A stretch of 35,119 bases of DNA, from positions 1 through 35,119 of the IMG/VR virus record IMGVR_UViG_3300036845_000545. One strand, written 5' to 3'. A program made the position numbers and the translations under genes. Positions 7,121 to 30,853 of the stretch are shown piece after piece. The stretch's first letter is position 1; every line of letters starts with the position of its first letter. The notes beneath the pieces are model-generated. The model had not been told where the DNA came from, did no database searches, and saw only the letters and a list, made by a program, of their open reading frames with translations. Origin of the DNA: a virus.

Positions 7121-9139
7121 ATGTCACTTTTTCCTCAAATAGACTCCGGATATTATAATGATGGGGATCGCCCTATACATGAGATGATGGAGTATTACTA
7201 TGCAATGGCCATTCAAATTAACCAATCCTTCTGGTCAGAAGCGGATATTGATTCACGTTTCAAGGCCGGAGACCAAACGTTATGGAATGACATTTATGGA
7301 AATCTTCCTGCTTTTCGTCGTCGTCAATTCAATTTTAATCGCATTAGACGTGTTGTTAACCTAATCACAGGTTATCAAAGACAACACCGTCTCCAGACTG
7401 TAGTCACGCCAATAGAAAATAGTGATGAGAGGACCTCGGAACAATTTAGCAAATTGATGATATGGGCTAATCAGAAATGTAATGCTCTAGAAATACTCTC
7501 CGAGGCATTTGAAGGAGCAGTAACTACTGGAATGAATCTTATTTCCGTTTGGCAGGACTTTAGAGAAGATCCTATAAATGGTGACATAAAAGTTGATAAT
7601 GTAAGCTATAATGAATATTTAATAGACCCTTTCTTTAAAAAACATGACATGTCAGATTGTCGTTTCGTTTGGACAAGGAAGTGGTTATCTAAGACTGAAA
7701 TAGCTTCTCTTCTTCCTGATCATAAGGAAGAAGTCAGGTCCATGTATGCTAGAGGATGGAGAGATGGTAAATTCCAATTCCAACCTGAATCGTATAATTA
7801 TGCCATGCAGGATCTCCTTACATACGATGAATTCTATTATCAGGATTATAGAAATCGTAAGATGTTGGTGGATACAGAGACTGGGGAGACTATGGAATGG
7901 AAGGGTCAAGATGATAGACTTTCCAGGTACCTCTCTTCTTTCAGTCAGATAAAGGTAATAGATCAGATAGTTCCCACTATCAAGTTAGCTATCTTGGTGA
8001 ATGGTAGGGTTTTTTACCATGATATTAATCCTCTGGGTATCGATAGATATCCTTTTGTTCCTGTCTTAGGGTATTACGAGCCTCAGATCCCTTATTTTCC
8101 ATGGCGTGTTCAAGGAGTAGTGAGAGGATTGAGAGATGCCCAATACTTGTATAATAGAAGAAAGATTATAGAGTTGGACATCCTAGAGAGTCAGATAAAT
8201 TCTGGGATAAAGTATAAAGAAGACTCTCTGGTAAATCCAAAAGACGCTTTCTTAAGTGGTCAGGGAAGGTCTTTAGCTCTAAAAAAAGAAGCTATGATGG
8301 ATGATGTACAAGTGATACAACCTCCTCAGATACCTCCTAGCATGATCCAGTTATCTCAAATTCTTGGTCAAGAAATTATGGAGATCAGTGGGGTTAATGA
8401 AGAACTTCTAGGATCTGCCACAGATGATAAGTCTGGAATCCTTTCCATGCTAAGACAAGGAGCTGGATTGACTACGCTACAGATTCTTTTTGATCAGTTG
8501 AATCAATCTCAAAAATTCTTAGGACAGATCTTCATAGATATTATGCAAGCTAATTTTTCACCTGGTAAGGTAAAAAGGATCATTCAACAAGAACCCACTC
8601 CTCAGTTTTATAATAGGGCTTTTCAAAAATATGATTGTGTTGTAGAAGAAGCAACTCTAACCTCTACTCAGAGACAACTCGCATTTAGTCAGGCATTTAT
8701 GCTTAGACAGGCCGGTATTCCCATCCCAGATAAATATCTTATTCAGCATCTAACTCTCCAAGATAAGGAAGAGCTTATAAGAGATATGGAAGAGGAGAAA
8801 AAGGCTACACAACAGGTTCAACAGCAACAACAACAGATCATTAATCAAGAGATGATGATGAGAGCGGAACAATCCAAAGCTTCTGCTCTTGAAAAACAAG
8901 GACTTGCAGCAGAAAGATTCAGTAGAGTAAGTGAAAATGAGAGTCTATCTGTTCAAAGGAAAGCCCAAGCCGTATATGACGAGGTTAAGGCAGTAAAAGA
9001 ACTTCAAAGTATGGATATTTCTCAACTGGAGAAAATGATAGGAATTCTCAATGCATTGAAGCAGACTCAACAGGTTGAGGAATCTGAAATAGAACAGAAA
9101 AAACTAAATCCTATGGAACAACCGGTTGGAGTTCTATAA
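7121..9139 (+). CDS. Portal protein (P22-type)
   Basis: The 672-residue protein has the typical podovirus portal order. An early segment reads FRRRQFNFNRIRRVVNLITG, followed by YQRQHR, and EGAVTTGMNLISVW comes next. A core contains YPFVPVLGYYEP and GVVRGLRDAQYLYNRRK. A long C-terminal helical region follows, with a Gln-rich run near residues 566-576. Length and motifs match the P22 gp1-type family. The portal dodecamer forms the DNA channel at one capsid vertex and docks the terminase and tail. It follows TerL and two small genes. RBS: AGAAGG close to the ATG. Confidence 0.92.
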   Translation: MSLFPQIDSGYYNDGDRPIHEMMEYYYAMAIQINQSFWSEADIDSRFKAGDQTLWNDIYGNLPAFRRRQFNFNRIRRVVNLITGYQRQHRLQTVVTPIENSDERTSEQFSKLMIWANQKCNALEILSEAFEGAVTTGMNLISVWQDFREDPINGDIKVDNVSYNEYLIDPFFKKHDMSDCRFVWTRKWLSKTEIASLLPDHKEEVRSMYARGWRDGKFQFQPESYNYAMQDLLTYDEFYYQDYRNRKMLVDTETGETMEWKGQDDRLSRYLSSFSQIKVIDQIVPTIKLAILVNGRVFYHDINPLGIDRYPFVPVLGYYEPQIPYFPWRVQGVVRGLRDAQYLYNRRKIIELDILESQINSGIKYKEDSLVNPKDAFLSGQGRSLALKKEAMMDDVQVIQPPQIPPSMIQLSQILGQEIMEISGVNEELLGSATDDKSGILSMLRQGAGLTTLQILFDQLNQSQKFLGQIFIDIMQANFSPGKVKRIIQQEPTPQFYNRAFQKYDCVVEEATLTSTQRQLAFSQAFMLRQAGIPIPDKYLIQHLTLQDKEELIRDMEEEKKATQQVQQQQQQIINQEMMMRAEQSKASALEKQGLAAERFSRVSENESLSVQRKAQAVYDEVKAVKELQSMDISQLEKMIGILNALKQTQQVEESEIEQKKLNPMEQPVGVL

Positions 9140-9729: not shown

Positions 9730-10188
9730 ATGATGACCACCAACGAAACAAAAGTAGAGAAGGAGACTTTAGGTAGTGCTTCGGTAAAACTTTTGTCCCA
9801 AGGGGATAAGAAGCAGCCTGTGATAGAAACTCAACGAGAAATGCAAAAAAACTACATGGAAAATCTGGTCACATGTGCTAAAGAAGGGGAAAAAAGACTG
9901 GGATGTGAAAAACCATTCTACTTATGTGTTCAAACTCGTAAGGAAAGACTGTTGACTAATGTTATACGTAGCCAATTCTATGTTCGTCAAACGAGACCCC
10001 TCCCTCAATATGATCTTGCTCTATATTGGTATGATCCTAAAGATGAGAGGATAGAGTTTATCTGGTGTATCCCAAATAGAGATACGGTTGAAGATATGAT
10101 TTACAAGGGAAATACCAATGGACTAGAAAAAGATCAGGTTCAACTATATAATTTTTGCGTAGGTTTCAAAAATGGAACCCTCATATAA
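9730..10188 (+). CDS. Hypothetical protein, 152 aa
   Basis: A helical, polar N-terminal part (to about residue 50: IETQREMQKNYMENLVTCAK) is followed by a compact domain. That domain has KPFYLCVQTRKERLLTNVIR, YDLALYWYDPKDERIEFIW and IPNRDTVEDMIYKG. The pattern of strands and the W/C/Y content suggest a folded alpha/beta domain seen in other podovirus structural-region proteins, which I cannot name. Its 3' end overlaps the next gene by 17 bases. A virion-assembly or host-takeover role is possible from position only. Confidence 0.75.
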   Translation: MMTTNETKVEKETLGSASVKLLSQGDKKQPVIETQREMQKNYMENLVTCAKEGEKRLGCEKPFYLCVQTRKERLLTNVIRSQFYVRQTRPLPQYDLALYWYDPKDERIEFIWCIPNRDTVEDMIYKGNTNGLEKDQVQLYNFCVGFKNGTLI

Positions 10189-10408
10189 CTCCTATGTGTA
10201 CGTATCCTATTTTAGGTATCCCTCTGGAGATAAGTTCCACGTATATGCTTGGAATGATGATAGGGGATCCATAACTTCAATGTTAATATCTACTGATGAA
10301 TGTAGAGAAGAGTATCCAACAATGAGAACAGATCAAGCAGTGAGAGAGATAGCAGTCAAGAGATTTAAGAATGGTCGATTAAATTATCCTGGTCACAGTC
10401 TAAGGTAG
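10172..10408 (+). CDS. Hypothetical protein, 78 aa
   Basis: The product begins MEPSYNSYVYVSYFRYPSGD and continues KFHVYAWNDDRGSITSMLIS, then a helical charged end (TDQAVREIAVKRFKNGRLNY). It looks like a small beta-rich fold. It overlaps the preceding gene by 17 bases. Its stop overlaps by 9 bases the stop of the leftward gene at 10400, so two converging transcripts meet here with no visible terminator. Function unknown. Confidence 0.7.
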   Translation: MEPSYNSYVYVSYFRYPSGDKFHVYAWNDDRGSITSMLISTDECREEYPTMRTDQAVREIAVKRFKNGRLNYPGHSLR

Positions 10409-10627
10409 ATCGTCTATATTTTGGGTCTTTATGTAGTCCATTAGATCTTCTTTCAACACCAATATTCTCCTATCAGTAGTGTAGAAACCTTTTAACTTAC
10501 CGAATTTTATTTCCCTATGTACAGAAGACTTCCCACCGAACAATCCCATTTTGACTAGATCTTTGACTGTGTAAAATTCTTTATAAAATTTTTTCATCAG
10601 TTTGTGGTAAAGGCTATCATGATTCAT
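10400..10627 (-). CDS. Excisionase-like HTH regulator
   Basis: The start is placed at 10627 (75 residues) because GAGGGA lies 8 bases before it; an in-frame ATG at 10642 would add 5 residues but has a poorer site. The sequence KEFYTVKDLVKMGLFGGKSS, then VHREIKFGKLKGFYTTDRRI and LVLKEDLMDYI, is the helix-turn-helix plus wing of excisionase/AlpA/MerR-type proteins: V.DL...G.. .. .V.R.I..GKL.......R...V..EDL..Y. It has the same general fold as the proteins at 1470 and 2129 but is more distant. It is the last gene of the leftward cassette, and its upstream region is dense in palindromes, so self-regulation is likely. Confidence 0.8.
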   Translation of the reverse strand: MNHDSLYHKLMKKFYKEFYTVKDLVKMGLFGGKSSVHREIKFGKLKGFYTTDRRILVLKEDLMDYIKTQNIDDLP

Positions 10628-10662
10628 GAAATGGTCCCTCATATCACTCTATTTAAATATGA

Positions 10663-10803
10663 CTCATGGAAAAATTTCCATATCCTGACTTCATGAGAAA
10701 TCTATGTGATTTATAAAACAAATTACCATTTCTAGGTAGGAATATTAGAGACTTATCATAGTCTGATAATATCCCTTATGTTCAAAGCACATGATTTTCA
10801 TGT
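10663..10803 (-). promoter_or_regulatory. Palindrome-rich control region upstream of the leftward HTH gene
   Basis: Four dyads occur in 141 bases: CTCATG/CATGAG (10663-10668, 10692-10697), ATGGAAA-AA-TTTCCAT (10666-10681), TTATCA-TAGTC-TGATAA (10753-10769) and ACATGA-TTT-TCATGT (10789-10803). On the minus strand a perfect TTGACA overlaps the last, and a TATGAT overlaps the third. This looks like a regulated leftward promoter with several protein sites. The rest of 10643-11111 holds only one weak small frame (10852-11037). Confidence 0.5.
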
Positions 10804-10851
10804 CAAGAAACAAGAAAATAAAAGTCAATGTTAAGATATTTATATCATTCA

Positions 10852-11037
10852 TTACATACATGCTAACAGGATGATCCTGGTGCATATTATTGCGCACTGG
10901 AAGTAAAAAAATATCTTGAACATGCTGATAACCATTTCATCGTGAAAATCTGAATTGAAACATAGACGATAGCATAAGCAGATACTGAAAATACTGATGA
11001 TATCTACAGGTGTTATATTCTTTATCAAAGGTTCCAT
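10852..11037 (-). CDS. Doubtful small hydrophobic frame, 61 aa
   Basis: An open frame of 61 codons (MEPLIKNITPVDIISIFSIC start; hydrophobic FKIFFYFQCAIICTRIILLA end) would make a one- or two-span membrane peptide. No good ribosome binding site precedes 11037 on the minus strand. The region is very AT-rich, where hydrophobic frames arise by chance. Its position in line with the other leftward genes is the only support. Confidence 0.25.
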   Translation of the reverse strand: MEPLIKNITPVDIISIFSICLCYRLCFNSDFHDEMVISMFKIFFYFQCAIICTRIILLACM

Positions 11038-11111
11038 GAGTATTTATATAGGCATCGTAAGAATTTCCTACGACACCTTGTATTTAAAATTTTATGAATA
11101 TATAAATAATT

Positions 11112-11726
11112 CTATTTTTTTATACATGCCACAGCCTGGCAATGAAAATCCCACATTTCCATGTAGTGTTCCAACTCTGCAAATTTTGATGTTAAATAAT
11201 CATACTCAAATAGTTTAACTATCACCTGACCTGCTAGGCATATACCTAATCCCTGTATAATGCCTCCTCCAACATATCCATTAGATAGAATGGTTAGAAG
11301 AGTTTCCATCAAATGTCTAGTGCTTTCTGTACATTTCATGTACCTTGGTTTGTTAATAATAGAATTAATATCATTGATTATTTCAGTAGCATGTTGCTCA
11401 CAATACTCCATTTTTTCTTTATGATATCTTATCATATTTTTTTCATTTCTAACTACCTTTGCTAGAGAAAAATCTTCAATTGAATGAATAAAGTTTATGT
11501 CATATATGGTTAAATCTAGTTTATCATAAACTAAAAATTTTCCTGAGTTAATCCGTGCAAAATCATCATGTTGATCACAAAATAATTCTGTAGATAGAGA
11601 TAGAGCAAAAAATAAGATCCCGAAATAAAAATTACCCACAGATTTGATTCCTTTTTTGTGACAAAATTTTCTTAGAAATATACAGAAAAAAGCCATTGCA
11701 ATATTTATAAATACCTTAAATATCAT
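11112..11726 (-). CDS. Membrane protein of the leftward cassette, 204 aa
   Basis: GGAGG lies 7 bases before ATG 11726. A first hydrophobic segment occupies about residues 2-18 (MIFKVFINIAMAFFCIFLRK start) and a second about 33-50 (YFGILFFALSLSTELFCD), the latter ending like a signal-peptide cleavage site. A helical region with several cysteines follows. Near 150-172 a Gly-rich hydrophobic stretch GYVGGGIIQGLGICLAGQVI could be a further membrane or pore segment. I do not recognise the family. It lies between a secreted protein gene and an HTH gene, and is probably an accessory envelope protein (for example superinfection exclusion) or a lysis protein. Confidence 0.7.
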   Translation of the reverse strand: MIFKVFINIAMAFFCIFLRKFCHKKGIKSVGNFYFGILFFALSLSTELFCDQHDDFARINSGKFLVYDKLDLTIYDINFIHSIEDFSLAKVVRNEKNMIRYHKEKMEYCEQHATEIINDINSIINKPRYMKCTESTRHLMETLLTILSNGYVGGGIIQGLGICLAGQVIVKLFEYDYLTSKFAELEHYMEMWDFHCQAVACIKK

Positions 11727-11862
11727 ATATCCTCCATATATGAGTGATCAAATTCAAAAATAACACCCAAATACAGAAAATAAGTATTGATTTAAATATT
11801 ATCTTAATCCATGAAAGTTCAGGATTGTCACACCCATTCCATACGATTACTAATAATATCAT
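11716..11862 (-). CDS. Possible 48-aa single-span membrane peptide
   Basis: The gap between the two leftward genes contains a frame from ATG 11862 to TAA 11716. It reads MILLVIVWNGCDNPELSWIK and continues IIFKSILIFCIWVLFLNLIT. It overlaps the start of the 204-aa gene by 11 bases. The only upstream signal is AGG directly before the ATG. It fits a small membrane peptide but could be chance in AT-rich DNA. Confidence 0.3.
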   Translation of the reverse strand: MILLVIVWNGCDNPELSWIKIIFKSILIFCIWVLFLNLITHIWRIYDI

Positions 11863-11884
11863 CCTGATAGAATCAATCGATAGG

Positions 11885-12748
11885 TTATATTCCATGCATT
11901 TTCAATGCCTCGATCTTCATTTCTAGATCTTCTATCTCTTCATACATCTGTATAGCTATTAGAAGATTTGCTTGTACCTGATCCAAATCTTCACGTGCTT
12001 GATTTGGTGTATTATCCAACTTGTAATTTATATATTTCCGGATCAAATAAGCAAAATTGATATCATCCTGTGTACCACCGAAATCCCATATACGTATGAA
12101 GTATCTTTCAAAACATCTTCCCTCTGTCTGACCACATTCATTTTTTTCTGGGAATGATCTACTCATATTTTCAACTACTGAGTGCATGATAGGTCGTGCT
12201 TTTTCTCTCTTCTCAGAAACTTGTTTCAATAGAATTGGAATATGTTTTTTGGTATATCCTTCCAATTCTGCTATTTGAGCTATATGGTATAACTTAAAGG
12301 TTCTAACATCTTTTCCATATGCTATGAGACATCTCTTGGATTTCTCAAGTAGTTTACAGATCCCTCCATCTCTATAGTTGCAGATGGTAACTTCAACTTC
12401 ATCGGTACAGGAAGACCTGCAGAATTGTAATACTTTGATCATGTTAGGATTGGCAAAACCAAAATCAAATGCTTTTTGTACAACCCAGAAACAATCATCT
12501 AGATACTGATATATCATTTCGAAATCAGAAAATGATTCTTCTCTTGTAATCCATGATTTATACATGATAAGAGCTTCATCAAAATGTAGACGAGATTCTT
12601 CTCTCTTCTGTGCGTACGATATTATTTCCCCATGACTAAATATTTTTTTTTCTAATTTGTTCATATCGATAGGCTCTTGTTCGGAACAAAATCCCTGTTG
12701 TAATACCAAAACACATCCAAGACCTACTGTAAACATCATTTTTTTCAT
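11885..12748 (-). CDS. Secreted Cys-rich protein of the leftward cassette, 287 aa
   Basis: MKKMMFTVGLGCVLVLQQGF then CSEQEP is a clear signal peptide (basic start, hydrophobic core, cleavage about residue 21-22). The mature part is helical and charged and contains paired cysteines (CRSSC; CNY; CGQTEGRC), suggesting disulfides outside the cytoplasm. GGAGG lies just before the ATG. I recognise no domain. It is the first gene of the leftward cassette, and its leader contains a sequence matching the phage control region at 33541. A phage-encoded exported protein with its own promoter inside the structural block is typical of a moron expressed by lysogens or infected cells. Its target could be the envelope or a eukaryotic host cell; this is not shown. 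Confidence 0.8.
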   Translation of the reverse strand: MKKMMFTVGLGCVLVLQQGFCSEQEPIDMNKLEKKIFSHGEIISYAQKREESRLHFDEALIMYKSWITREESFSDFEMIYQYLDDCFWVVQKAFDFGFANPNMIKVLQFCRSSCTDEVEVTICNYRDGGICKLLEKSKRCLIAYGKDVRTFKLYHIAQIAELEGYTKKHIPILLKQVSEKREKARPIMHSVVENMSRSFPEKNECGQTEGRCFERYFIRIWDFGGTQDDINFAYLIRKYINYKLDNTPNQAREDLDQVQANLLIAIQMYEEIEDLEMKIEALKMHGI

Positions 12749-12761
12749 TAGATCCTCCCTT

Positions 12762-12788
12762 GTTAACGCCGTGTTATGTTTCAGCGTT
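12762..12788 (-). promoter_or_regulatory. Operator-like leader of the secreted-protein gene
   Basis: On the minus strand, 12777-12765 reads ATAACACGGCGTT, matching 33541-33553 (ATAACACGGTGTT) except for one transition. At the latter site it forms a palindrome inside the leftward early promoter. AACGC (12765-12769) and GCGTT (12784-12788) can also pair in the RNA. It lies between the probable promoter and the GGAGG site. Confidence 0.45.
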
Positions 12789-12874
12789 CTGTTCTAAATA
12801 CTGTATAGATGAGTAAATATTTTCAAGTTTCATCTCTAAACCTAGTAAAATCAGTCACTTATGAAAATTTATCG

Positions 12875-12903
12875 TTGATATAAAAATAATATTTTCATAC
12901 ATT
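12875..12903 (+). promoter_or_regulatory. Candidate promoter for the scaffold-capsid genes
   Basis: TTGATA (12875-12880), a 17-base AT-rich spacer and TACATT (12898-12903) lie 44 bases before the scaffold start at 12947. This is a sigma-70-like match, and a restart promoter is needed here because the leftward cassette interrupts the rightward genes. Confidence 0.5.
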
Positions 12904-12946
12904 CAAAATAGGCGAAAACTAGGGTCGCCTCCTAGGAGAAACACAG

Positions 12947-13621
12947 ATGGATGAACAAAATTCTAGCGTATTACAGGAAGTCGCTACCCCTGAGCAAGTA
13001 AATCAATCTGTATCAGAGGTTGGTGAATCTCCAATTCAAAAGGGCTCGAATGATCCCCAAGAAAAAAATTGGAGAGAAATTCGTCAGACCTTGAAAGAAC
13101 TACGACATGAGAATCAATTATTACGCCAGCAAATCCAAGCTCCTAGGGAATCTATTCCTCAAGAACCTGAGGGTGAAGATGAGCCCTATGTTACTCCTCA
13201 AAGATTTAAGAGACAAATCGAGGATCTAGAGAAGAGACTTAAGGTCAAGGAAGCAGAATCTAGTGAGGATAGGGTAAGGGCCAAATATTCTGATTATGAT
13301 GAAGTGGTTACAGAAGAAAATATTGAATATCTGAAACAAAACGATCCCGAACTTGCTCAATCTATAAGAGCTCTTTCCGAAGATCCATACAAGCAAGCCC
13401 TAGCTGCGTATAAATTACTCAAGAAGACGGACTACCACATGGGTAAACAGACTCGTAAAGACCAGGAACAGATGGATATGAATTCCAAGAAACCTGTTTC
13501 TGTTCAGGCAGTTCGCAAGCAAGGAGTTCTTTCAGAAGCAAATAGGTTTGCCAATGGATTAACACCAGAACTCAAAAAAGCTCTCCTAAAAGAGATGCAA
13601 GACGCAAGGAAGGGAGCGTAA
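12947..13621 (+). CDS. Scaffolding protein (probable)
   Basis: The 224 residues are highly charged, Gln/Glu/Lys-rich and largely helical. A disordered acidic N-terminus (to about residue 40) leads to a coiled coil around 42-65 (WREIRQTLKELRHENQLLRQ). A second helical part RFKRQIEDLEKRLKVKEAES follows at about 86-105, then a region YSDYDEVVTEENIEYLKQND shared by many N4/P22-type scaffolds, and a basic C-terminal helix. Such proteins fill the prohead and are released. It lies 14 bases before the major capsid gene, as expected. RBS AGGAG. Confidence 0.85.
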   Translation: MDEQNSSVLQEVATPEQVNQSVSEVGESPIQKGSNDPQEKNWREIRQTLKELRHENQLLRQQIQAPRESIPQEPEGEDEPYVTPQRFKRQIEDLEKRLKVKEAESSEDRVRAKYSDYDEVVTEENIEYLKQNDPELAQSIRALSEDPYKQALAAYKLLKKTDYHMGKQTRKDQEQMDMNSKKPVSVQAVRKQGVLSEANRFANGLTPELKKALLKEMQDARKGA

Positions 13622-13635
13622 AACCATGAGGAATT

Positions 13636-14583
13636 ATGGGAATTACGACTTCAAGTGTGCTTCCAGCACCTGTACAGCAGTCATTCTCATATAAGTTGTT
13701 GTCCGTACCAGTTCCTTACATGATCCATAAGATCCCAGCAGATCTTAAGGCTATGCCTAGGAATGGTGGTACAACACTTCGTATGAGACGTTATAATCCA
13801 TTGAATACGGCTACAGTTCCACTGGGGAATTCAGGAATTACTCCACCCCCTCAACAACTTACAGCTGTAGATATTGATGCCAAGATGGACTTCTATGGTA
13901 CCTATATCTATCTAAATGAGCAGGTAACTCTTCAGAACCAAGATCCTGTTCTTAATGAAGCATCTCAGCGTCTTGGTGTCTCTTTAAGACAGACTGAAGA
14001 CGAACTTACACGTAATATGCTCGCTTCCACAGCCAGCTTCATTAACTGTACTGGTGGTGTTAACGGGGACAACCCCACAGAAATGACGCGTTTCGATGTT
14101 GACACTGTGATTCAAACACTGGCAGGAAATAATGCCTATACTATCTCAGATAACATTATAGGGGATGATAAATTCGGTACAGCACCTGTAAGGGATGCTT
14201 ACTTCGCACTTGGAAGTACCAGTCTTATCAGAACTATAGAAAATGTTACTGGTTTCATAGCGAAGGCTCAATATCCTTATCAAGAGACTGTTCTACGTCC
14301 AGAATGGGGGTCTGTATCTAACCTTAGATTCCTTCTCTCAAGTATTGGTAGCGTCACTCCAAATGCTTCTGCACTGGGAAATGACATATACAATGTATTC
14401 TGTGTTGGGATGGAAGCTTATGCTTGTATAGAACAGGATGGATATTCTGCTCAATTTCTATACCGTCCACCTATTTATGACGGTCCTTTAGCTTTGAATG
14501 CTAGCGTGGGATACAAATTTGCTGAAGTTCCAAGGATCACAAATGATGCTTGGGTAATAAACCTCAGAACTACCACGATATAA
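13636..14583 (+). CDS. Major capsid protein, N4-gp56 type
   Basis: The 315 residues match the N4-gp56 family pattern: MIHKIPADLKAMPRNGGTTL with MRRYNPL near the start, and LTAVDIDAKMDFYGTYIYLN in the P-domain region. YFALGSTSLIRTIENVTGFI, AKAQYPYQETVLRPEWGSVS and NLRFLLSS follow, then a beta-rich end (WVINLRTT). These HK97-fold subunits form the icosahedral shell. It directly follows the scaffold gene; AGGA precedes ATG 13636. A pairing of an N4-type capsid with P22-type portal and tail genes is seen in several environmental podovirus groups. Confidence 0.92.
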   Translation: MGITTSSVLPAPVQQSFSYKLLSVPVPYMIHKIPADLKAMPRNGGTTLRMRRYNPLNTATVPLGNSGITPPPQQLTAVDIDAKMDFYGTYIYLNEQVTLQNQDPVLNEASQRLGVSLRQTEDELTRNMLASTASFINCTGGVNGDNPTEMTRFDVDTVIQTLAGNNAYTISDNIIGDDKFGTAPVRDAYFALGSTSLIRTIENVTGFIAKAQYPYQETVLRPEWGSVSNLRFLLSSIGSVTPNASALGNDIYNVFCVGMEAYACIEQDGYSAQFLYRPPIYDGPLALNASVGYKFAEVPRITNDAWVINLRTTTI

Positions 14584-24216: not shown

Positions 24217-24405
24217 TTATTTCCTATCCTTATTTTTTTCTTCTATAGCGCATAGACGTCCGTGGAAGTCTTTTATCTCTTCTTGAATAGCATCTATTTT
24301 AGCATCCATGTGTTTCCAATCTGATCTAGATTCGGAACGGAACCATAATATAAGAGTAGCATTGGCCAAGAAAAGTGATATGATCTGAACCCAACTTTCG
24401 GTCAT
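24217..24405 (-). CDS. Small membrane/coiled-coil paralogue C, 62 aa
   Basis: One N-terminal membrane span (MTESWVQIISLFLANATLIL) is followed by a short coiled coil ending EEIKDFHGRLCAIEEKNKDR plus K. It is a close relative of the 73-aa protein encoded just upstream (shared (T/N)ESW(V/I)Q and KDFHGRLC(A/S)IEE) and a looser relative of the 24627 product. AGGAAA precedes the ATG, as in its paralogues. The single shared Cys in each could allow disulfide dimers. Type III membrane topology would fit a holin, spanin partner or exclusion protein. I cannot assign a function. Confidence 0.75.
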   Translation of the reverse strand: MTESWVQIISLFLANATLILWFRSESRSDWKHMDAKIDAIQEEIKDFHGRLCAIEEKNKDRK

Positions 24406-24408
24406 GGT

Positions 24409-24630
24409 CTATTTCCTTTCTCTGTATCTTTCTTCGATAGAACATAGTCTTCCATGGAAGTCCTTCATTTCTTGACTTATAGCCCTGATATCTTGTCTTG
24501 AAGATTCACTGATGGCTCTTATTTCTTCTCTCATACCATTATGAAGTGAGATAGATACTCCAAAGAATGTCAACATAATGATTAAATTTGAACCTACTAT
24601 AGTGAGAACCTGTATCCAACTTTCGTTCAT
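24409..24630 (-). CDS. Small membrane/coiled-coil paralogue B, 73 aa
   Basis: The protein begins MNESWIQVLTIVGSNLIIML with one membrane span to about residue 26. It continues with a coiled coil containing an internal doubling (EEIRAISESSRQ / QDIRAISQEMKD) and the shared end KDFHGRLCSIEERYRERK. The doubled ..IRAIS.. unit explains why it is 11 residues longer than paralogue C. AGGAAA lies before the ATG, which overlaps the stop of the upstream gene by 4 bases. The next gene starts 3 bases after its stop. The family is reminiscent of short membrane proteins seen in intracellular-bacterium genomes, but this is memory, not a search. Confidence 0.78.
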   Translation of the reverse strand: MNESWIQVLTIVGSNLIIMLTFFGVSISLHNGMREEIRAISESSRQDIRAISQEMKDFHGRLCSIEERYRERK

Positions 24631-24806
24631 TGTGTTTTCCTATTTTTATATAGATCTCTAATCTCTTTCTGAACTTCACAATACATTTCATAAAGTCTGT
24701 CAGTCCTACTAGATTGTCTCTCTATTTTTCCATCTAGAAGATAGAAACTACCCAATATTGTGATTAGCAAGACGATAAATTCAGCGTGTCCTATCCATTC
24801 ATTCAT
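24627..24806 (-). CDS. Small membrane/coiled-coil paralogue A, 59 aa
   Basis: The start is taken as 24806 (MNEWIGHAEFIVLLITILGS). It has AGGAAA at the same distance as its two paralogues and lies 8 bases after the upstream stop; an earlier in-frame ATG at 24836 lies inside the preceding gene. A single membrane span (about 8-24) is followed by a charged helix with EMYCEVQKEIRDLYKNRK. The start, span, helix and one Cys match the other two small proteins, but the FHGRL motif is replaced. It is the most diverged of the three. Confidence 0.75.
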   Translation of the reverse strand: MNEWIGHAEFIVLLITILGSFYLLDGKIERQSSRTDRLYEMYCEVQKEIRDLYKNRKTQ

Positions 24807-24814
24807 ATATTTTC

Positions 24815-25153
24815 CTATTTGTATTTTGAGGGACACTCTTCATTCTGACATTTAATTCCTATAGGCCAATTTTGATGGCAATAAGGACACTTCCAGGTCC
24901 TCTTATATTCCATAGTAGGACTATCTTTGCAGGACTTAAGGATATTGCATTCTAATGTATAGGTACCTGTGTAGTCTTTGAATATGGAATCCGTTTCTAT
25001 CCATGTATTATTTCCTATATGTATTAGAAATTTCTCTTGATTAATGTCTAGTTCTTCCATATCTATATATATCCTATCGGATCTAGTGGATGAATATACA
25101 GAATTAGATATGATAAATATCATCATGTACATAGTATATGTTCTAAATGACAT
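24815..25153 (-). CDS. Secreted zinc-ribbon protein, 112 aa
   Basis: The start is taken as 25153, where AAGAGGCA gives a good ribosome site; an in-frame ATG at 25183 would add 10 residues. The first ~22 residues (MSFRTYTMYMMIFIISNSVY then SS) form a signal peptide or anchor. The middle is beta-like (KFLIHIGNNTWIETDSIFKD; YTLECNILKSCKD). The end has WKCPYCHQNWPIGIKCQNEE and CPSKYK, that is CPxC...C....C, a zinc-ribbon or two-disulfide knuckle. An exported zinc ribbon is unusual for a phage. It is the first gene of a four-gene leftward cassette with three paralogous membrane proteins, suggesting a joint envelope function. Confidence 0.75.
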   Translation of the reverse strand: MSFRTYTMYMMIFIISNSVYSSTRSDRIYIDMEELDINQEKFLIHIGNNTWIETDSIFKDYTGTYTLECNILKSCKDSPTMEYKRTWKCPYCHQNWPIGIKCQNEECPSKYK

Positions 25154-25183
25154 AACTGCCTCTTGAAAGTATAAGTTTATCAC

Positions 25184-29591: not shown

Positions 29592-30011
29592 ATGGCTTAT
29601 AATACTCCTGATCTTATAGCTGGAACAGGGATTTCTCTAGTAGATTCTACAGGAACTGTCACAGTCAACTCTGTAGGATCTGGACTTACTTGGACAGTTA
29701 TTACTGGAGCTTCTCAAGCAATGACGTCTAATCATGGGTATATTGCTAATAGGGCAGGAACTGTTGCTTTCACATTACCGACCACAAGCGCGATAGGTGA
29801 TACTATAGCTGTGACAGGAATAAATACAACTACTGGGTGGACAATAAGTTACACTACTAATCAGCAAATATTCTTTGGTACTTCTAGTGCCACATTGTCT
29901 TCTGGATCTTTAGCATCTACAAATATAAGAGACACTGTTTTTCTGATATGTGTGACTGCTAATCTGACTTGGAACGTATTCTCTTCAATAGGAAATATAA
30001 CGGTGGCATAA
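29592..30011 (+). CDS. Fibre-array protein, 139 aa
   Basis: A short attachment module (LIAGTGISLVDSTGTVTVNS) is followed by a domain WTVITGASQAMTSNHGYIAN with FTLPTTSAIGDTIAVTGINT and a final ICVTANLTWNVFSSIGN. The second part has the form of the small cap domain at the end of the 28140 product (G....I......G......... W.V). This one is a free-standing copy. It starts directly after the beta-helix gene, and its TAA overlaps the next ATG. Probably a short fibre. Confidence 0.75.
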   Translation: MAYNTPDLIAGTGISLVDSTGTVTVNSVGSGLTWTVITGASQAMTSNHGYIANRAGTVAFTLPTTSAIGDTIAVTGINTTTGWTISYTTNQQIFFGTSSATLSSGSLASTNIRDTVFLICVTANLTWNVFSSIGNITVA

Positions 30012-30853
30012 TGGCAACTAATAACTCTTCAAATATACCTACAGCAAATTCTGGAACTATACTACGTGGTCAAGGTATAGGAACCAATTCTGCTTTTTCT
30101 ACTGCTACTTATCCTGATAGCACTGTACAAGGAGATCTCTTGATCTCTAGTACTTCAAACACATTGACATCCTTAGCTAAGAATACAACTTCTACCCGTT
30201 ACCTTGCTAATACAGGCACTAGTAATAATCCTGCATGGGACCAAGTAAATTTGACCAATGGTATCACAGGAGTTCTCCCCATTGCCAATGGAGGAACTAA
30301 TTCTTCCAGTATGACCACTAGTAGTGGTATTATCACATATAATGGTAGCTCATTGGTTACTTCCACTGCGACGATAGATTCTTCAAATAGATATACGAAT
30401 TCCTCTCAGCCCATAGCTATCATTGAGTTTGGAAGTACCGTTAATAATGTTACTGGTGATGGAACAGTATATACCATAAAATTCGATACTGCTGAATTGA
30501 ATGTAGGTAACTCTTATACTACGAGTACGGGTGTATTCACTGCCCCTATAGCTGGAAGATATTTATTTAGTTATTCAGTCACCGTTACAAATGTAACAGT
30601 TCTTCACACTAGTGGAAACTGTATTTTCGTTTCTTCAGCATTTACAGGGGCCAATAACTCTAATAACCCAGGTGCTATATTCAATCCTGTGTCTAACTTA
30701 CTTACCTATACATTCTCGAGAATATGGACTACCAATGCAAATAGTACCTTCAGCGTAACCATTACTATCTCAGGAAGTACCAAGACAGTAGGAGTAAAGG
30801 GATTAGATGCAGGGGGATCCTATACTAGTTTGAGTATAGCTCTCCTAGACTGA
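30011..30853 (+). CDS. Fibre with C1q-like tip, 280 aa
   Basis: The start is ATG 30011, overlapping the preceding TAA; a TTG at 29969 in the same frame lies inside the previous gene. The N-terminal half is a Ser/Thr/Asn-rich fibre module with NGITGVLPIANGGTNSSSMT (the GGT. module also seen in the 25317 product). The C-terminal ~130 residues carry IKFDTAELNVGNSYTTSTGV, FTAPIAGRYLFSYSVTVTNV and later FSRIWTTNANSTFSVTITIS, the strand order of a C1q/TNF-like jelly roll, often a trimeric receptor-binding head. It is the last gene of the array; its stop is 2 bases from the convergent leftward gene's end. Confidence 0.8.
   Translation: MATNNSSNIPTANSGTILRGQGIGTNSAFSTATYPDSTVQGDLLISSTSNTLTSLAKNTTSTRYLANTGTSNNPAWDQVNLTNGITGVLPIANGGTNSSSMTTSSGIITYNGSSLVTSTATIDSSNRYTNSSQPIAIIEFGSTVNNVTGDGTVYTIKFDTAELNVGNSYTTSTGVFTAPIAGRYLFSYSVTVTNVTVLHTSGNCIFVSSAFTGANNSNNPGAIFNPVSNLLTYTFSRIWTTNANSTFSVTITISGSTKTVGVKGLDAGGSYTSLSIALLD

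What the first reader, a model, noticed from the sequence alone, without database searches (positions are those of the whole stretch)
10400..12748. AT-rich leftward cassette with exported proteins splits the structural block
Between portal and scaffold the direction flips for about 2.3 kb: an HTH protein, a membrane protein with a Gly-rich hydrophobic segment, and a secreted Cys-rich protein of unknown family. The cassette has its own control signals. Exported phage proteins often change the host surface or act outside the cell; with an unknown 287-aa secreted protein, this is the best place for an undescribed function (superinfection exclusion, host virulence or lysis).
Basis: partly seen in the sequence, partly recalled or inferred. 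Interest (0 to 1): 0.75.

Follow-up and report, generated by a model that had tools for sequence, protein, structure and literature searches.

The report
Phage cargo slot with exported proteins
This phage carries, backwards and in the middle of its capsid genes, a small cassette of exported proteins with no known relatives; dozens of related phages carry other exported or host-directed proteins in the same stretch, which looks like a cargo bay of phages that probably infect chlamydia-like bacteria.

Summary
The cassette is real: 10400-12748 is leftward and the most AT-rich 2.3 kb of the record (31.2% GC against 38.0%). It holds a tight operon, sec287-memb59-mem204, plus a weakly HTH-like 80-aa protein. 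'Own control signals' do not exceed chance. sec287 (signal peptide, 10 Cys) and mem204 have no detectable relatives. Position and relatives explain them better. The window belongs to a family with at least 524 IMG/VR contigs. Across its members the portal-scaffold interval is a variable slot, often with leftward genes. 20 of 293 slot genes have signal-peptide-like N-termini, against 0 of 526 structural genes. Many look like outer-membrane barrels. Two relatives carry U-box (E3-ligase-like) membrane proteins whose best PDB match is Legionella LubX and whose homologs lie in 17 of 234 Chlamydiota genomes, one beside a type III chaperone gene. The capsid gene occurs in 8 of 234 Chlamydiota genomes, against 1 of 295 controls. 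Best reading: a cargo (moron) slot of tailed phages probably infecting Chlamydiota; here its exported proteins most likely act at the host envelope, less likely in the eukaryotic cell around it. The exact function of sec287 and mem204 is inferred, not shown.

The parts
9730..10188 (+). p152, conserved left-hand marker of the slot (KTVG..D.QRE.. family)
   Evidence: homolog beside the slot in most relatives
10172..10408 (+). p78, last rightward gene before the cassette; its 3' end overlaps the 3' end of hth80 by 9 bp
   Evidence: no homolog in the loci held
10400..10642 (-). hth80, small HTH_17/AlpA-like protein (weak)
   Evidence: Pfam HTH_17 E=0.0092, below cut-off; no clear Shine-Dalgarno
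10643..11111 (.). low-coding gap in the cassette (possible 61-aa membrane ORF 10852-11037 -); no Rfam match
11112..11726 (-). mem204, N-terminally anchored or exported, 8 Cys, Gly-rich hydrophobic segment; orphan
   Evidence: GGAGG upstream, hydrophobicity 2.0 at residues 1-19; no family
11716..11895 (-). memb59, small membrane protein overlapping both neighbours by 11 bp (operon-like)
   Evidence: hydrophobicity 2.5 at residues 32-50
11885..12748 (-). sec287, signal peptide (about 1-21), 8 Cys in the mature part, mostly helical; orphan
   Evidence: GGAGG upstream, SP test; no relative; AF2 mean pLDDT 51.7, no fold match
12749..12946 (.). divergent intergenic region; cassette promoter expected here but not demonstrated
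   Evidence: position; promoter scan at chance
12947..13621 (+). scaffold-position gene, right-hand marker of the slot
   Evidence: precedes the capsid gene in relatives, roughly 27-61% identical
13636..14583 (+). major capsid protein, used to define the phage family
   Evidence: PHROG major head protein E=4.8e-28; 92-95% identical to the nearest relatives
24217..24806 (-). second leftward set: three TM + coiled-coil proteins (..KDFHGRLC.IEE..); the first two are paralogs, the third only similar in layout
   Evidence: homologs of the first two in the slot of L046 and, weakly, of L002
24815..25183 (-). rec122, exported CxxC/Zn-ribbon-like protein
   Evidence: homologs in the slot of L002 (4.9e-28) and L003 (3.3e-24)

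Best explanation
The leftward block is this phage's load in a cargo (moron-like) slot. In a widespread family of tailed phages that probably infect Chlamydiota, the interval between the portal gene and the scaffold/capsid genes is a tolerated insertion site for separately oriented, usually leftward genes. The cargo differs from phage to phage and is often exported. Shown here: the slot, its variability, the leftward bias, the lower GC, the enrichment in signal-peptide-like N-termini, U-box proteins with chlamydial homologs in two relatives, and the link of the capsid gene to Chlamydiota genomes. Inferred: in the window sec287 is secreted through Sec and folds outside the cytoplasm with disulfides, while memb59 and mem204 sit in or are anchored at the inner membrane; together they change the envelope of the infected bacterium, most likely to block adsorption or DNA entry of competing phages, less likely to act on the eukaryotic cell in which the bacterium lives.
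For: Slot: of about 60 relatives with both markers, a large share have genes in the portal-scaffold interval, mostly leftward where the gap exceeds 1 kb; the nearest relatives L002 and L003 have 3.6-4.3 kb leftward blocks at the same place with different genes. Slot GC lies below the phage's own in 13 of 13 cases (p=0.0002). Export: 20 of 293 slot genes SP-like against 0 of 526 structural genes (Fisher p=8e-10). Several end in barrel signatures (GIGF, GWGF, FGYRF, KWGF). Host-directed cargo: U-box in L016 (4e-8) and L023 (6.4e-5), both above Pfam's cut-off; LubX is the best PDB match (7.8e-8); 17 of 234 Chlamydiota genomes match, best 2.8e-31, none of 231 archaeal controls; L023 is 34% identical over 302 aa to a chlamydial gene next to a CesT chaperone (5.7e-12). 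Host: capsid family in 8 of 234 Chlamydiota genomes against 1 of 295. One cargo pool: relatives of rec122 and of the 24.2-kb coiled-coil proteins lie in the slot of L002, L003 and L046.
Against: sec287 and mem204 have no homolog anywhere tested, so their role rests on position and export signal only. The signal-peptide test is a home-made heuristic. Cassette dinucleotide use is not foreign. The host link rests on binned MAG contigs of phage length (35-41 kb), not on integrated prophages; one relative was binned with a methanogen, and the only controls were archaeal. Some slots hold only DUF551-like, Zn-finger, recombinase or sigma-like genes rather than exported proteins.
Confidence: 0.62

Rival explanations
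1. The cassette encodes effectors for the eukaryotic (protist) cell around the bacterium: phage-borne virulence or symbiosis factors, as the U-box proteins of relatives appear to be, and comparable to the eukaryotic association module of Wolbachia phage WO.
For: U-box membrane proteins in the same interval of two relatives, with chlamydial chromosomal homologs, one next to a T3SS chaperone gene; Parachlamydiaceae use RING/U-box and F-box proteins as type III effectors (PMC4209131); phage WO precedent (PMC5062602).
Against: sec287 has a Sec signal peptide, not the usual route for type III effectors; no eukaryote-like domain in sec287 or mem204; barrel-like cargo is more frequent than U-box cargo in the slot.
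Confidence: 0.25
2. It is the lysis module: mem204 or memb59 as holin, sec287 as an exported lysis protein.
For: No endolysin, holin or spanin was recognised elsewhere in the genes scanned; membrane and exported proteins lie together.
Against: Opposite strand to the late genes and not conserved in any relative; no muralytic family; the TM + coiled-coil proteins at 24217-24806 are as good or better holin-like candidates.
Confidence: 0.08
3. The reverse cassette is a selfish or decaying insertion (mobile or horizontally acquired genes with no benefit to the phage).
For: AT-rich, orphan, partly non-coding gap at 10643-11111; serine recombinases occur in the slot of 9 relatives.
Against: sec287 and mem204 are intact, with strong Shine-Dalgarno sites and operon-like 11-bp overlaps; no recombinase or clear end repeats at this cassette; exported proteins recur in the slot across the family.
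Confidence: 0.1

Closest known systems
Moron / accessory loci of tailed phages (e.g. P22 SieA and other envelope exclusion proteins)
   Same: Separately oriented small genes inserted between virion genes, AT-rich, variable, often encoding envelope proteins
   Different: No sequence relation; own promoter and terminator not demonstrated; temperate life not shown (no integrase recognised in the genes scanned)
Eukaryotic association module of Wolbachia phage WO (PMC5062602)
   Same: Phage of an intracellular bacterium carrying eukaryote-like domains (U-box in relatives)
   Different: Here the cargo sits between head genes in about 35-40 kb genomes, is small, and no gene transfer from eukaryotes is shown; absent from the window itself
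Chlamydial ubiquitin-related effectors (NEX1b RING/U-box; PMC4209131) and Legionella LubX
   Same: U-box domain; chlamydial homologs of the phage proteins; LubX is the best solved-structure match
   Different: Phage and chlamydial homologs are membrane-segment + U-box proteins rather than U-box + LRR; only in relatives L016 and L023, not in the window
Podovirus-type phages with phrog_156 portal (e.g. Pseudomonas phage KPP25, Paracoccus phage KLEP18-1)
   Same: Portal family (about 20-27% identity), gene order TerL-portal-capsid; KLEP18-1 has a reversed HNH gene just before the capsid gene
   Different: No exported cassette seen in KLEP18-1; unrelated accessory genes

Membership tests
Phage moron / cargo slot | Gene(s) absent or different at the same site in close relatives | tested here: met
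   L002, L003, L006 have different leftward genes there; sec287/mem204 absent from all relatives
Phage moron / cargo slot | Composition different from the surrounding phage genes | tested here: inconclusive
   GC 31.2% against 38.0%, lowest in the record; but dinucleotide signature ordinary
Phage moron / cargo slot | Own promoter and terminator | tested here: inconclusive
   Opposite strand, but consensus sites at chance level
Phage moron / cargo slot | Expression independent of the lytic programme | not testable with these tools
   needs transcript data
Superinfection-exclusion proteins | Membrane or exported protein | tested here: met
   signal peptide in sec287, hydrophobic segments in mem204/memb59
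Superinfection-exclusion proteins | Blocks infection by related phages | not testable with these tools
   no cultured host
Lysis module (holin/endolysin/spanin) | Homology to a lysis family | tested here: not met
   Pfam, PHROGs, NCBIfam, PDB
U-box effector carriers (relatives only) | U-box domain above the curated cut-off | tested here: met
   L016 33.7 and L023 23.5 bits against 21.4; LubX best PDB hit. Not met by any protein of the window's cassette
Phages of Chlamydiota | Phage capsid gene in Chlamydiota genomes more than elsewhere | tested here: met
   8/234 against 1/295, p=0.013; 1 of the 2 hits in the genome collection of 84,980 species is a Parachlamydia MAG
Phages of Chlamydiota | Direct physical or experimental host link for this phage | not testable with these tools
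   contigs are phage-sized, not integrated

The most novel reading that the evidence does not exclude
A common, uncultured family of tailed phages infects environmental Chlamydiota and uses a fixed slot between portal and capsid genes to carry envelope and effector genes that it exchanges with chlamydial chromosomes; sec287 and mem204 are a new, undescribed kind of this cargo acting on the bacterium's envelope or on the amoeba.
Probability: 0.4. Interest if true: 0.8.

Novelty: new variant of a known kind. Interest (0 to 1): 0.58.

Why it matters
The literature searches here turned up only the single-stranded Gokushovirinae as described chlamydia phages. A widespread family of tailed phages tied to Chlamydiota, with a slot that carries U-box proteins related to chlamydial ones and barrel-like exported proteins, would give a route by which effector genes move between chlamydia-like bacteria, and a list of small exported proteins to test for phage exclusion and host-cell effects. 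The window's orphan proteins would be part of that cargo.

Tried and rejected
Homologs of sec287/mem204 in phages, IMG/VR, PDB, Pfam, PHROGs, NCBIfam, PADLOC: none. A full-length weak match of mem204 in a Chlamydiota genome (E=0.007) looks like an ExbB/TolQ-type protein matching mainly by hydrophobic segments: rejected. The sec287 match in Chlamydiota (E=0.0019) has three stops: chance. AlphaFold models of sec287 and mem204 are poor (mean pLDDT about 52) and the Foldseek hits are noise. sec287 and mem204 are not paralogs. Rfam: nothing in the window. Repeats flanking the cassette: only imperfect short pairs of the kind chance gives. The first gene caller, trained on structural genes, missed mem204 and was replaced. 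An L062 barrel-like protein matched Chlamydiota proteins only weakly (9 genomes, E 1e-5 to 8e-4): treated as suggestive only. A recombinational inversion of a conserved phage block: rejected, because relatives have no homologous rightward copy.

Full report
WHAT IS THERE. The record is a 35,119-bp virus contig. Rightward genes run RusA, TerL, portal (7121-9139), p97, p152, p78 (to 10408), then the scaffold-position gene (12947-13621), capsid (13636-14583) and tail genes. Between p78 and the scaffold gene everything substantial is leftward: hth80, mem204, memb59, sec287. sec287, memb59 and mem204 overlap successively by 11 bp, like an operon; sec287 and mem204 have GGAGG ribosome sites, while memb59 and hth80 do not. 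The block has 31.2% GC against 38.0% for the rest and is the most AT-rich stretch of its length, but its dinucleotide signature is ordinary. Promoter and terminator patterns are at chance level. sec287 carries a signal peptide by a crude test, and it and mem204 are rich in cysteine.

NO DIRECT HOMOLOGY. sec287 and mem204 match nothing in Pfam, PHROGs, NCBIfam, PADLOC, IMG/VR or 234 Chlamydiota genomes beyond chance, and sec287 nothing in the phage collection or PDB sequences. Structure prediction without an alignment was poor and gave no usable fold. Identity therefore has to come from context.

THE FAMILY. The capsid protein is 92-95% identical in the closest relatives and at least 524 IMG/VR contigs encode a relative (80 were kept). 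In the portal tree the window groups with L002, L003, L004 and L051.

THE SLOT. In relatives the portal-to-scaffold interval varies from a few hundred bases to several kb, with extra genes on either side of p152, and inserts over 1 kb are mainly leftward. The nearest relatives L002 and L003 carry 3.6-4.3 kb leftward blocks at exactly this place, with other genes: Zn-finger, DUF551-like, sigma-region-4-like, TM + coiled-coil, and an exported CxxC protein. Homologs of the last two kinds sit in the window at 24217-25183, also leftward. So one pool of leftward cargo occupies two sites. In all 13 cases compared (p152-scaffold gap over 1 kb) the slot is more AT-rich than the phage. Signal-peptide-like N-termini occur in 20 of 293 slot genes (11 of 80 leftward ones) and 0 of 526 rightward structural genes, shuffled expectation 0.8 for the slot. 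Many of these exported proteins end in the aromatic C-terminus of outer-membrane barrels.

HOST-DIRECTED CARGO. Slot proteins of L016 (252 aa) and L023 (317 aa) have a hydrophobic segment and a U-box above Pfam's cut-off; the best solved-structure match is the Legionella E3 ligase LubX. A profile of them matches 17 of 234 Chlamydiota genomes, down to 2.8e-31, and none of 231 archaeal control genomes. One chlamydial homolog is 34% identical to L023 over 302 aa and lies next to a CesT-family type III chaperone gene and an NADPH-dependent-reductase-like gene, that is, in a chromosomal setting. Parachlamydiaceae are known to use RING/U-box and F-box proteins as type III effectors (PMC4209131).

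HOST. The capsid profile matches 8 of 234 Chlamydiota genomes against 1 of 295 in the archaeal phylum of the only other hit (p=0.013). Most of the matching contigs are 35-41 kb, the size of a free phage genome, so the link rests on binning. The methanogen-binned phage is the sister of a Chlamydiota-binned one in the portal tree, which suggests that it is the misbinned one. The host is probable, not proven.

HOW IT MOST LIKELY WORKS. A separately oriented cargo block, tolerated between virion genes, makes exported proteins that alter the envelope of the infected bacterium. For sec287-memb59-mem204 exclusion of competing phages is the most economical function; a role in the eukaryotic cell is the main alternative; lysis is unlikely. 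These functional steps are inference. Papers on tailed phages of Chlamydiota were not found in the searchable library, which is not proof of absence.

VERDICT. A real accessory cassette in a family-wide cargo slot: a new variant of a known kind. The family-level pattern is more interesting than the two orphan proteins.

Noticed in passing
L085 10001-12800 (= L117 15930-18662); L086; Chlamydiota genomes G037, G070, G124, G144: The major capsid gene is split into 2-5 pieces. In L085 the four inserts of 0.3-0.7 kb share conserved ends with a group-I-intron-like core (..GATGCGATAGTCTGAAC..) and carry small ORFs, some DUF551-like; Rfam finds no intron family there even at E<=5.
   Followed up: partly
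window 24217-25183 (-): Second leftward set between tail and fibre genes: three TM + coiled-coil proteins (two paralogous) and an exported CxxC protein, homologous to slot genes of L002, L003 and L046.
   Followed up: yes
L003 9268-10727 (-), L002 7264-7735 (-): Tandem array of DUF551-like genes (WISVKD.LP...THWMPLP) in the slot of close relatives.
   Followed up: no
L008, L009, L011, L012, L014, L016, L017, L023, L030 slot: A ~185-aa serine recombinase (..YARISTPKQS..) accompanies the leftward slot genes in nine relatives, possibly a DNA invertase or cargo mobiliser.
   Followed up: no
window 29969-30853: C1q-like domain at the end of a fibre-region protein (Pfam C1q E=4.6e-10).
   Followed up: no
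L025 6669-7991 (-): TROVE/Ro60-like protein in the slot of a phage (Pfam TROVE 6.5e-13).
   Followed up: no
window whole: No endolysin or holin family recognised in the genes scanned, so the lysis genes of this phage are unknown.
   Followed up: partly
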